A stretch of DNA of 54,318 bases from assembly GCA_947465495.1 (NCBI GenBank), contig CANIAS010000015.1, positions 1-54,318 on the forward strand. The letters run 5' to 3'. The notes under the pieces were generated by a model. The model saw only the letters and a list, made by a program, of their open reading frames with translations, made no database searches and was not told the DNA's origin. Position 1 is the stretch's first letter; each line of letters opens with the position of its first letter. Shown one piece after another: positions 4,764 to 54,318 of the stretch. This DNA comes from Candidatus Pollutiaquabacter sp. (lineage in GTDB: Bacteria; Bacteroidota; Bacteroidia; AKYH767-A; 2013-40CM-41-45). Position numbers and translations under genes: made by a program.

Positions 4764-6281
4764 ATGGCTTGTGGATCTTGTAGTACCGGAAAAGACGGCC
4801 AACCTGGCGGGTGCAGAAACAACGGCACCTGCGGTACGGGTGGCTGCAACAAGCTGAACGTATCCAATTGGTTGACAGACATGGTGCTGCCGCATGGACA
4901 AGCACCGTATGATATCGTTGAAGTTCGTTTTAAAGGAAGCAGAAAAGAATTCTATCGCAATAAAGAAGTCACGGACCTTAAGGTCGGAGATGTAGTTGCG
5001 TTGGAGGCTTCTCCCGGACACGATGTTGGAGTTGTTTCGATGACCGGAGAATTGGTTCGTTTTCAGTTGCGTAAAAAAGGACTGACAGAATCGTCGGATA
5101 CGATTAAGGCCTTATATCGTCGTGCGAAACAGAGTGAGGTGGAAAAATGGCTCGAGGTAAAAGATAAAGAGGCGTCCATGATTCTTCGCACGCGCACGGT
5201 CATTCAGACGTTGCGCTTGCAAATGAAATTGAGTGACGTGGAATTTCAGGGTGATGGAAAGAAAGCTACCTTTTACTATACAGCGGATGAACGCGTCGAT
5301 TTCCGTGAACTAATTAAACGGTTGGCGGATGAGTTTCGTATTCGCATCGAGATGCGTCAGATTGGAATGCGTCAAGAAGCTAGTCGTGTTGGTGGTTTAG
5401 GAGTCTGCGGATTAGAACTGTGTTGTTCTACGTGGTTGACTGATTTTAAGACGGTGTCTACCGGCGCAGCACGGTATCAAAATCTAGCATTGAATCCTGC
5501 GAAACTAGCCGGGCAGTGCGGTAAACTGAAGTGCTGTCTCAATTACGAACTGGACAGTTATATGGATATCATGCGTGATTTTCCACAAACTAACGTTGCG
5601 CTGGAAACGGAAAAAGGTCGTGCGGTCCATCAGAAGACAGATATTTTCAAACGATTACTATGGTATTCGTATATCAACGATCGTAGAGGCGCAGCAGAAG
5701 GATCCAGTGGTCCGGATGGCGGTGCTTGGGTTGCTATTCCATTGGATCGTGTAAAAGAAATTATTGCGTTGAATAAATCCGGACAGAAAGCCGGAGACTT
5801 GTTAGAAGGAGAATGGCTGGAAGTAGAAGAAGTAGAGAAGGAGCCGGATTATCTGAATGTCGTCGGTCAAGATCGTATTGACCGGATGGACAAGAAGAAA
5901 AAGAAGAAAAAGAAAAAGAAGCCGTCCGATGTCAGAGGAGGTTCGCAAGTAGCTTCACCAAGTCCAGTTGTAGAAGGCGGAAATCCTCTAACACCCAAGG
6001 AGAATCGTCCGCAACAACAAGGAAAACGTCCGCAAGGAGATCGTCCGCAACAACAAGGACAACGTCCGCAAGGAGATCGTCCGCAACAACAAGGACAACG
6101 TCCGCAAGGAGATCGTCCGCAACAACAAGGACAACGTCCGCAAGGAGACCGTCCGCAACAACAAGGACAACGTCCGCAAGGAGACCGTCCGCAACAACAA
6201 GGACAACGTCCGCAAGGAGATCGTCCGCAGGGTAATCGTCCTCCACGTCAACAGCCACCTAAATCCGACGACGGAAAATGA
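4764..6281 (+). CDS. ricT: RicT/PSP1-domain protein with repeat-expanded C-terminal tail
   Basis: PSP1 (YaaT/RicT) proteins are cytoplasmic; in Bacillus RicT works in an Fe-S containing complex affecting RNA maturation and development. The 505-aa product has a Cys-rich N-terminus (C3, C6, C17, C23, C28), the PSP1 core to about residue 345 with conserved cysteine clusters (GLELCCSTWL and GQCGKLKCCLNYE), then a disordered basic tail. The tail contains ten consecutive lysines (residues 377-386) and six perfect-to-near-perfect 12-residue RPQQQGQRPQGD repeats (residues 415-486). The N-terminal cysteines and the pairing with gldH, whose ATG overlaps this stop codon, are typical of Bacteroidota. The long tail is the unusual part. 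Confidence 0.88.
   Translation: MACGSCSTGKDGQPGGCRNNGTCGTGGCNKLNVSNWLTDMVLPHGQAPYDIVEVRFKGSRKEFYRNKEVTDLKVGDVVALEASPGHDVGVVSMTGELVRFQLRKKGLTESSDTIKALYRRAKQSEVEKWLEVKDKEASMILRTRTVIQTLRLQMKLSDVEFQGDGKKATFYYTADERVDFRELIKRLADEFRIRIEMRQIGMRQEASRVGGLGVCGLELCCSTWLTDFKTVSTGAARYQNLALNPAKLAGQCGKLKCCLNYELDSYMDIMRDFPQTNVALETEKGRAVHQKTDIFKRLLWYSYINDRRGAAEGSSGPDGGAWVAIPLDRVKEIIALNKSGQKAGDLLEGEWLEVEEVEKEPDYLNVVGQDRIDRMDKKKKKKKKKKPSDVRGGSQVASPSPVVEGGNPLTPKENRPQQQGKRPQGDRPQQQGQRPQGDRPQQQGQRPQGDRPQQQGQRPQGDRPQQQGQRPQGDRPQQQGQRPQGDRPQGNRPPRQQPPKSDDGK
5892..5921 (+). repeat. AAG/AAA run encoding ten consecutive lysines in RicT
   Basis: Ten lysine codons in a row, mixed AAG and AAA, giving a highly basic stretch between the PSP1 core and the RPQQQG repeats. 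Such a run can slow ribosomes or bind RNA; which applies is unknown. Confidence 0.85.
6006..6221 (+). repeat. Six tandem 36-bp coding repeats in the ricT tail
   Basis: Six in-frame 36-bp units (starting at 6006, 6042, 6078, 6114, 6150 and 6186) encode RPQQQGKRPQGD once and RPQQQGQRPQGD five times. Units differ by only a base or two: unit 1 has AAA for CAA (K for Q), and units 4 and 5 end GAC where others end GAT. A partial seventh unit follows. Near-identity at DNA level, including synonymous sites, points to recent expansion by slippage or unequal recombination. Confidence 0.97.
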
Positions 6282-52704: not shown

Positions 52705-53997
52705 ATGAAATACCCCGCCATTGATTCTTCTCTTTTTAGTGAGAATCGTAAAAAGTACGTTGCCCATCTTTCTGAGAAGTCCATCGCTATTTTTAATAGC
52801 AACGATGAAATGCCGCGCAACGGCGATGCGAATTTTCTTTTTCGCCAGCAGTCGGATTTGTTTTGGTTGACCGGTATCGATCAGGAGCAGACCATTCTCG
52901 TGCTTGCACCGCATCATCCAATTTCTGAATACCGTGAATTGCTTTTTGTGCGCAAGACCAACGAGCACATTGCAGTGTGGGAAGGACATAAATACACCAA
53001 AGAAGAGGCGCGCGCTGCTTCAGGGATACAGTCGGTTTATTGGCTCGACGATTTTCAATCCCTCTTGCCTGTGCTGATGCACCATTCCGACAAAGTATAT
53101 CTTAATCTCAACGAAAACGATCGTTTCGTCACTGAAGTTCCTTACCGCGACCAGCGCTTTGCAGCATCGCTGCGAGAAAAATATCCGCACCATCAATACG
53201 AAAGGTCTGCACCTTTGATGGCCGCCTTACGTGTGATAAAGTCGGATACTGAAATCCAGTTAATGCGAACTGCTTGCGACATCACCGACAAAGCGTTCCG
53301 CCGAGTGCTTCGTTTCACACGTCCCGGAGTGAACGAATGTGAAATCGAAGCAGAGATCATCCATGAATTCATCCGTAACCGTGCGACGGGACATGCTTAC
53401 ACCCCCATCATTGCCAGCGGACCGAATGCTTGCGTGTTGCATTACAATGAAAACAACAAGGATTGCAAAGCAGGCGATGTGATCTTGCTCGACTTCGGTG
53501 CGGAATATGCCAATTATGCCGCGGATCTTAGTCGCAGCATTCCTGTCAGTGGTAAATTCAGCGCACGTCAGCGCGACGTATACAACGCGGTCTTGCGCGT
53601 GATGCGTGCCGCTCGCAAAATGCTTATGCCAGGAACCATCATTTCAAAATACCACGAGGAAGTTGGCTGGGTGATGCAGGAAGAGTTGATAAAACTTGGA
53701 TTGCTCGATGCGGAGGCCGTTAAGAAGCAAGATCCAAAGTCACCGCTATACAAGAAGTACTTCATGCACGGCACCTCCCATTTTCTGGGATTGGACGTGC
53801 ACGATATCGGCAGCCGTTACGAACCGCTGGAGTCAGGCATGGTACTGACTTGCGAGCCTGGAATCTATATTCCTGAAGAGGGATTAGGCATCCGTATCGA
53901 GAACGACATCCTCATCACCTCAAAGGGCCCCGTCGACTTGATGGAGCAGATTCCGATTGAAGTAGAGGAGATCGAAGAATTGATGTCTAGTAAGTAA
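52705..53997 (+). CDS. Xaa-Pro aminopeptidase (aminopeptidase P)
   Basis: Removes N-terminal residues before proline; cytoplasmic M24B peptidase with two metal ions. The 430-aa protein has an AMP_N domain (about 5-135, NRKKYVAHLSEKSIAIFNSN) and the pita-bread catalytic domain with ligands D263 (LLDFGAE), D274 (AADLSRS), H355 (HGTSHFLGLDVHD), E384 (CEPGIYI) and E399 (RIENDIL). All five ligands are intact. Upstream is TAATTTAG, one mismatch from a -7 box and 4 nt before the ATG. Last gene in the window; the repeat array begins 210 bp after its stop. Confidence 0.95.
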   Translation: MKYPAIDSSLFSENRKKYVAHLSEKSIAIFNSNDEMPRNGDANFLFRQQSDLFWLTGIDQEQTILVLAPHHPISEYRELLFVRKTNEHIAVWEGHKYTKEEARAASGIQSVYWLDDFQSLLPVLMHHSDKVYLNLNENDRFVTEVPYRDQRFAASLREKYPHHQYERSAPLMAALRVIKSDTEIQLMRTACDITDKAFRRVLRFTRPGVNECEIEAEIIHEFIRNRATGHAYTPIIASGPNACVLHYNENNKDCKAGDVILLDFGAEYANYAADLSRSIPVSGKFSARQRDVYNAVLRVMRAARKMLMPGTIISKYHEEVGWVMQEELIKLGLLDAEAVKKQDPKSPLYKKYFMHGTSHFLGLDVHDIGSRYEPLESGMVLTCEPGIYIPEEGLGIRIENDILITSKGPVDLMEQIPIEVEEIEELMSSK

Positions 53998-54151
53998 AGC
54001 GCTAGTTATTGCACATCCTTCTTAAGCTTTATCGACATGATGATGTGATGGATTTCACGGAGGAGTTTTTATCGGATAAAATTTGGCATCTCTCCAAATA
54101 ATAAATGTTGATTAGCAGGGTCACGCTACGACATATTTGTATCTGCCGCGA

Positions 54152-54173
54152 AATAAAAATCAGCGATTGCTGA
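54152..54173 (-). terminator. Possible intrinsic terminator for a minus-strand gene beyond the window
   Basis: Read on the minus strand: TCAGC-AATC-GCTGA stem-loop (54160-54173) followed by TTTTTATTT. Five base pairs is short, so this is tentative. Confidence 0.35.
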
Positions 54174-54196
54174 ACTTAACTTTTGGGTTTAGTTCA
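54171..54196. repeat. Imperfect 10-bp inverted repeat before the tandem array
   Basis: TGAACTTAAC and GTTTAGTTCA pair over ten positions with one mismatch around a 6-nt loop TTTTGG. It shares three bases with the neighbouring hairpin, so only one can form at a time. Confidence 0.6.
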
Positions 54197-54206
54197 TCAC
54201 TTCGCC

Positions 54207-54318
54207 GACCACCGACCACCGACCACCGACCAATCGACCACCGACCAATCGACCAATCGACCACCGACCAATCGACCACCGACCACCGACCACTGACCAC
54301 TGACCAATCGACCACCGA
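54207..54318. repeat. Mixed tandem array of GACCACC, GACCACT and GACCAATC units
   Basis: Fifteen contiguous units run off the right edge: three GACCACC, then GACCAATC, GACCACC, two GACCAATC, GACCACC, GACCAATC, two GACCACC, two GACCACT, GACCAATC, GACCACC and a partial GA. All begin GACCA and are 7 or 8 bp long (ten 7-mers, five 8-mers). The alternating unit length breaks any reading frame, so this is not a protein repeat. True length is unknown because the window ends inside it. Confidence 0.97.

What the first reader, a model, noticed from the sequence alone, without database searches (positions are those of the whole stretch)
54207..54318. Array of 7- and 8-bp GACCA-type units with mixed order
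Sequence shows 15 contiguous units of three kinds (GACCACC, GACCACT, GACCAATC) in a non-simple order and with mixed 7/8-bp length, starting sharply at 54207 and continuing past the edge. The G/C-strand bias (no G except the first base of each unit) makes one transcript strand C-rich and the other G-rich, so the minus strand would carry spaced GG pairs. It resembles short tandemly repeated repetitive sequences described from some cyanobacteria, but is in a Bacteroidota-like genome. Function, if any (recombination, transcript end, protein-binding site), is inference.
Basis: seen in the sequence. Interest (0 to 1): 0.6.

Follow-up and report, generated by a model that had tools for sequence, protein, structure and literature searches.

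The report
Seven-base repeat array, likely orphan arm
The contig ends in a real array of 7- and 8-base repeats, one of at least seven in this genome; in its closest relatives the same kind of array forms matching inverted arms around a small gene of the "23S rRNA intervening sequence" family, which ties two long-unexplained features of bacterial genomes together.

Summary
In detail: 15 units (8 GACCACC, 5 GACCAATC, 2 GACCACT) run from 54207 to the contig end, far beyond chance. It is not unique: the genome holds at least seven such arrays, all beside gene 3' ends. They belong to the known class of intergenic heptamer tandem repeats. In 500 kb of a same-genus genome, period-7 arrays (63 with three or more copies) far outnumber other short periods, and each genome has its own unit sequences.

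[quoted passage not shown] The two flanks are often reverse complements (27 of 57; 1% expected), the 5' arm G-rich (26 of 27), and the genes co-directional with both neighbours (46 of 53; controls 70 of 143). In relative G007, 7 of 8 IVP-arm heptamers match arrays elsewhere in that genome. In relative G008, this family's sister unit frames an IVP gene behind rplI, where our genome has only a small hairpin-like array.

The window array has no IVP gene beside it. It is best read as an orphan C-rich arm; how such arrays arise and spread remains inference.

The parts
54207..54318 (+). Array of 15 units, 7-mers GACCACC/GACCACT and 8-mer GACCAATC, cut by the contig end; C-rich on + strand, i.e. the base bias of the 3' arm of an IVP element
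   Evidence: polarity rule
53998..54206 (.). Intergenic stretch between the aminopeptidase P gene and the array; no IVP gene and no significant G-rich partner arm in the 800 bp left of the array
   Evidence: (left score 18 against shuffled 95% level 20)
52705..53997 (+). Neighbouring gene, Xaa-Pro aminopeptidase (AMP_N + Peptidase_M24); its 3' end faces the array; context only

Best explanation
The array is one orphan copy of a genome-specific family of short-period intergenic tandem repeats. [quoted passage not shown] Transcribed, the two arms would pair into a long stem with the IVP gene in the loop, as the stems of 23S rRNA intervening sequences do. The window array has the base bias of a 3' (C-rich) arm but no IVP gene and no partner arm in the known sequence, so it is most likely a solo arm or a remnant of a hairpin, lying in a tolerated spot behind gene ends. 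Shown: the array, its multi-copy family, genome-specific unit pools shared by orphan arrays and IVP arms, inverted complementarity and polarity of the arms, sense orientation of IVP genes, and a G008 locus where the sister family frames an IVP gene. Inferred: that arrays lengthen by slippage or unequal exchange in unit steps (the 8-mers arising from GACCACC by an inserted A, then C to T); that orphans descend from or spread with IVP elements; that the transcript stem is what matters for the element.
For: Seven loci of one unit family in a 2.7 Mb genome with shared derived variants. G008 behind rplI: (AGTCGGC)n - IVP gene - (GACCGCC)n, sister family RCYGACY; own C3 locus at the same rplI position has a 25-nt G-rich arm abutting a GACCACC array and folds as a hairpin, z -3.4 and -6.8 on the two strands. 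58 IVP loci: short-period arrays within 600 bp in 39, both sides in 17, against 0.9-13% and at most 0.5% at random positions. Flanks reverse-complementary above the 99% null in 27 of 57, direct 8. 5' arm G-rich in 26 of 27. IVP co-directional with both neighbours 46 of 53 against 70 of 143. G007 arms equal orphan families 7 of 8, against 1 of 27 and 2.4% random. In Chryseobacterium salipaludis (L134) a GACCACC array follows an IVP gene directly.
Against: Most arrays have no IVP gene near: 25 of 29 GAYYACY loci, 113 of 114 cross-phylum GACCACC loci, nearly all G007 arrays, all 7 own arrays. Some genomes with arrays have no IVP match. Orphans are enriched between convergent genes, IVP elements lie between co-directional genes. 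The far flank of the G008 rplI site is not shown to be orthologous. In L134 the 5' flank is not complementary to the 3' arm.
Confidence: 0.5

Rival explanations
1. Ordinary long simple sequence repeat: a heptamer born by chance, enlarged by polymerase slippage and unequal exchange, copied now and then to other sites, and tolerated behind gene ends, with no functional tie to IVP genes; IVP flanks are just one more place where such repeats accumulate.
For: Heptamer arrays with many unit sequences occur across phyla, mostly without IVP genes near; higher-order order of the units (23-nt period) looks like block duplication; location in non-coding DNA behind genes.
Against: Does not predict reverse-complementary flanks, fixed G-rich/C-rich polarity, sense orientation of IVP genes, or a shared unit pool of arms and orphans; does not by itself explain one unit at seven sites.
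Confidence: 0.37
2. A 3'-end regulatory or protecting element: the array, or the hairpin its G-rich transcript forms, stops transcription or RNA decay between converging genes.
For: All seen flanking gene ends in this genome are 3' ends; convergent regions carry arrays more often in G007, 14 of 47 against 29 of 252, p=0.0025; the minus-strand transcript folds well, z -5.5.
Against: Unit sequence and presence change completely between species of one genus; several arrays sit behind an ordinary terminator; not convergent-biased in the phylum set; the plus-strand transcript is unstructured.
Confidence: 0.08
3. Assembly artefact at a contig end.
For: Three of seven arrays sit at contig ends (C15, C20, C70).
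Against: Four arrays of the same family are inside contigs, and the first 20 kb of 25 other contigs show no such array; short-read contigs break at repeats, which explains the three.
Confidence: 0.03

Closest known systems
Intergenic heptamer repeats of bacteria: TAACTGA in Beggiatoaceae, Cyanobacteria and some Bacteroidetes (PMC4679880); GGGNATC in Xanthomonas and Nostoc (PMC4692102); STRRs of Calothrix (cited in PMC4692102)
   Same: 7-nt units, head to tail, mostly intergenic, many sites per genome, patchy distribution
   Different: Different unit; mixed 7- and 8-nt units; few loci (seven); no runs of three G; those papers describe no inverted arms and no IVP gene
23S rRNA intervening sequences (IVS) with S23p/IVP gene, as in Coxiella burnetii (PMC4990558)
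   Same: PF05635 gene in the loop between terminal inverted repeats, sense orientation inside a transcription unit
   Different: The elements seen here lie between protein genes, not in 23S rRNA, and their arms are tandem arrays of 6-8-nt units; the window array itself has no IVP gene
MITE-like, gene-less derivatives of mobile elements (general knowledge)
   Same: Many gene-less copies beside few complete elements, shared end sequences
   Different: No transposase, no target duplication shown; end sequences are simple arrays that differ between species
Avd of diversity-generating retroelements (homology with PF05635 discussed in PMC10053308)
   Same: Same protein fold family as the IVP genes
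   Different: No reverse transcriptase or template/variable repeat was looked for or seen here; only a lead for what IVP may do

Membership tests
Intergenic heptamer tandem repeats (LSSR/STRR type) | Head-to-tail units of 7 nt beyond chance | tested here: met
   with 5 of 14 spacings of 8 nt
Intergenic heptamer tandem repeats (LSSR/STRR type) | Several dispersed loci per genome, mostly non-coding | tested here: met
   Seven loci, all intergenic
G-quadruplex repeats of the GGGNATC type | Runs of three or more G per unit | tested here: not met
   Only GG pairs; G4Hunter 0.5-1.0 on the minus strand
IVS-like IVP element (window array as a complete member) | PF05635 gene next to the array | tested here: not met
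   No IVP in the window or near any own GACCACC array; DNA beyond the contig end not held
IVS-like IVP element (window array as a complete member) | Reverse-complementary partner arm | tested here: not met
   None in the 800 bp to the left; to the right the contig ends. A short partner arm exists only at own locus C3
IVS-like IVP element (window array as an orphan arm) | Same unit family frames an IVP gene in the closest relative | tested here: met
   G008 C369, RCYGACY arms around an IVP gene
IVS-like IVP element (window array as an orphan arm) | Descent from, or mobilisation by, an IVP element | not testable with these tools
   Needs strain pairs or experiments
23S rRNA intervening sequence | Location inside a 23S rRNA gene | tested here: not met
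   Array lies behind an aminopeptidase gene; no Rfam match in the window

The most novel reading that the evidence does not exclude
IVP genes with inverted short-period arrays are a widespread class of sense-oriented IVS-like elements lying between protein genes, and many of the unexplained heptamer arrays of bacterial genomes, this one included, are their solo arms or gene-less hairpin derivatives, mobilised or maintained in trans by IVP.
Probability: 0.3. Interest if true: 0.8.

Novelty: new variant of a known kind. Interest (0 to 1): 0.55.

Why it matters
Heptamer arrays have long been catalogued in bacteria without an accepted reason for the period or for their spread, and IVP/S23p has a solved structure but no known function. 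Finding that IVP genes are framed by reverse-complementary short-period arrays drawn from the host genome's own array pool gives both a concrete, testable common explanation, and a handle (arms, polarity, sense orientation) on how intervening sequences may be carried in transcripts.

Tried and rejected
(1) GACCACC as a privileged sequence: the reversed unit is commoner in viral contigs (28 vs 4 stretches), and in the phylum 33 of 395 genomes have GAYYACY arrays against about 16 with the reversed control (counted by eye), so no strong privilege. (2) G-quadruplex role: too weak, and absent in most sister families. (3) Arrays always between convergent genes: true of this genome and enriched in G007, not in the phylum set (6 convergent of 26). 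(4) Known RNA family: none in the window; only a tRNA at the other array loci. (5) Strict period 7: IVP arms also come with periods 6 and 8. (6) Insertion always right behind a terminator: seen at rplI, C65 and one G007 locus, but only 6 of 27 paired-arm IVP loci have a T-run within 60 nt before the arm. (7) Array presence depending on IVP presence per genome: 29/33 against 269/362, weak. (8) Base bias of arrays relative to transcription in tandem gene pairs of G007: none (24 vs 21). (10) A first PDB query used a wrong frame and was repeated.

Full report
Observation. The array is real. From 54207 to the last base of the window there are 15 units: GACCACC (8), GACCAATC (5), GACCACT (2), with nine 7-nt and five 8-nt spacings. 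Thirteen three-unit matches against none in 100 shuffles rule out chance. The window is an entire contig, C15, of a 2.72 Mb assembly in 117 contigs, so the array is cut by the contig end. Its 5' neighbour is an aminopeptidase P-like gene whose stop is 209 bp away.

The family in this genome. Pattern searches of the whole genome found seven loci: C3, C5, C7, C15 (window), C20, C65, C70. Units recur across loci: GACCAACC in C3, C65 and C70; GACCAATC in C15 and C70; GACCATC in C5 and C7. The 8-mers read most simply as GACCACC with one inserted A (GACCAACC) and then C to T (GACCAATC). By contrast, 500 kb of other stretches of the genome contain no period-7 array with three or more copies. Every flanking gene end that could be seen is a 3' end: three complete loci lie between convergent genes (C5 after setting aside a spurious short ORF), and the three contig-end loci face a 3' end. 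C65 also follows a gene end.

The wider class. Heptamer arrays are known from cyanobacteria, Xanthomonas, Beggiatoaceae and some Bacteroidetes (PMC4692102, PMC4679880). Here the exact 26-mer (GACCACC)3GACCA occurs in at least 114 stretches across many phyla. GAYYACY arrays occur in 33 of 395 genomes of the phylum, about twice the number for the reversed control. In same-genus genome G007, 500 kb hold 63 period-7 arrays with three or more copies against 6 for all other periods up to 12 together (a further 11 have periods 14, 21 or 35); a Markov-shuffled copy holds none. These arrays fall into 29 recurrent unit families, none of them the window's. So the period is shared and the sequence is private to each genome.

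Orthologous sites. At the pepP site G008 has no array and G007 has a different heptamer, GTTCACT. At lptB and at the dehydrogenase E1 gene no array was seen in either relative. Behind rplI, G008 has the sister unit RCYGACY and G007 none.

The IVP link. [quoted passage not shown] the protein matches PDB 2gsc, the Xanthomonas family member. Following this, I took 58 IVP loci from the family and phylum. Short-period arrays lie within 600 bp in 39 of 58, on both sides in 17; random positions in sampled stretches give 0.9-13% for any side and at most 0.5% for both. The two flanks align as reverse complements above the 99% level of mismatched pairs in 27 of 57, against 8 in direct orientation. The 5' arm is G-rich in 26 of the 27. 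IVP genes run the same way as both neighbours in 46 of 53, against 70 of 143 control genes of similar size (p=1.2e-6; gene calls by a simple longest-ORF rule). In G007, 7 of 8 IVP-arm heptamers are identical to families of arrays elsewhere in the genome, against 1 of 27 arms from other genomes and 2.4% of random heptamers. I found no paper describing this arrangement (open-access library only).

What this means for the window. By its base bias the array is of the 3'-arm kind. Its own genome has one IVP gene, on C19, with hexamer arms, and no IVP gene near any GACCACC array. The C3 locus shows a short G-rich arm abutting the C-rich array; it folds as a hairpin. It occupies the rplI position where G008 has the complete element, although the far flank could not be shown to be the same. 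I therefore read the GACCACC arrays as orphan arms of a family that in the sister species frames an IVP gene. The step from 'same pool' to 'descended from' is inference. Against it stand the many arrays without IVP genes and the different placement of orphans (enriched between convergent genes) and IVP elements (between co-directional genes).

Mechanism, graded. Shown: structure, multiplicity, private unit pools, inverted arms, polarity and sense orientation of IVP genes. Well grounded in known work: IVS stems are formed by terminal inverted repeats and cut by RNase III (PMC4990558). Inferred: growth by slippage or unequal exchange; a transcript stem formed by the two arrays; spread with, or by, IVP elements. 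The lone array in the window probably has no function of its own now.

Limits. Gene calls for context are approximate. TRF thresholds miss degenerate arrays. Sampling covered parts of each genome.

Noticed in passing
G007 stretches L226, L245-L248, L265-L284: Very dense heptamer arrays (71 in 500 kb) of 29 unit families, several families often side by side in one intergenic region; the window's genome, in the same genus, has almost none in an equal sample.
   Followed up: partly
58 IVP loci, L367-L426: IVP genes lie co-directional with both neighbours far more often than control genes (46 of 53 against 70 of 143), as if carried inside transcription units.
   Followed up: partly
L374 (own genome C19, about 26.0-26.9 kb): Behind the only IVP gene of this genome stands a composite unit (G-rich hexamer arm, short core, C-rich hexamer arm) repeated about three times, next to what looks like a tRNA gene.
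   Followed up: no
window 5996-6229, ORF 4764-6281 +: Coding 36-bp repeat, 6.5 copies, giving a Q/R/G/P-rich tail (PQQQGQRPQGDR) on a 505-aa protein.
   Followed up: no
G007 C1:745114-746015 (L340, L343, L346, L349): Four copies of the same 21-mer at a spacing of about 294 bp: a longer tandem repeat that contains heptamer units.
   Followed up: no
IMG/VR contigs L309-L336: The reversed-unit control (CCACCAG)n is frequent in viral contigs, in some cases near both ends of one contig (UViG_3300044966_000686, UViG_3300043414_001022).
   Followed up: no
L204, L205, L208, L203, L217 (other genomes of the phylum): Gene-less palindromes: (AGTARTC)n followed within a few bases to about 30 bases by (GAYTACT)n, always with the G-rich arm on the left.
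   Followed up: partly
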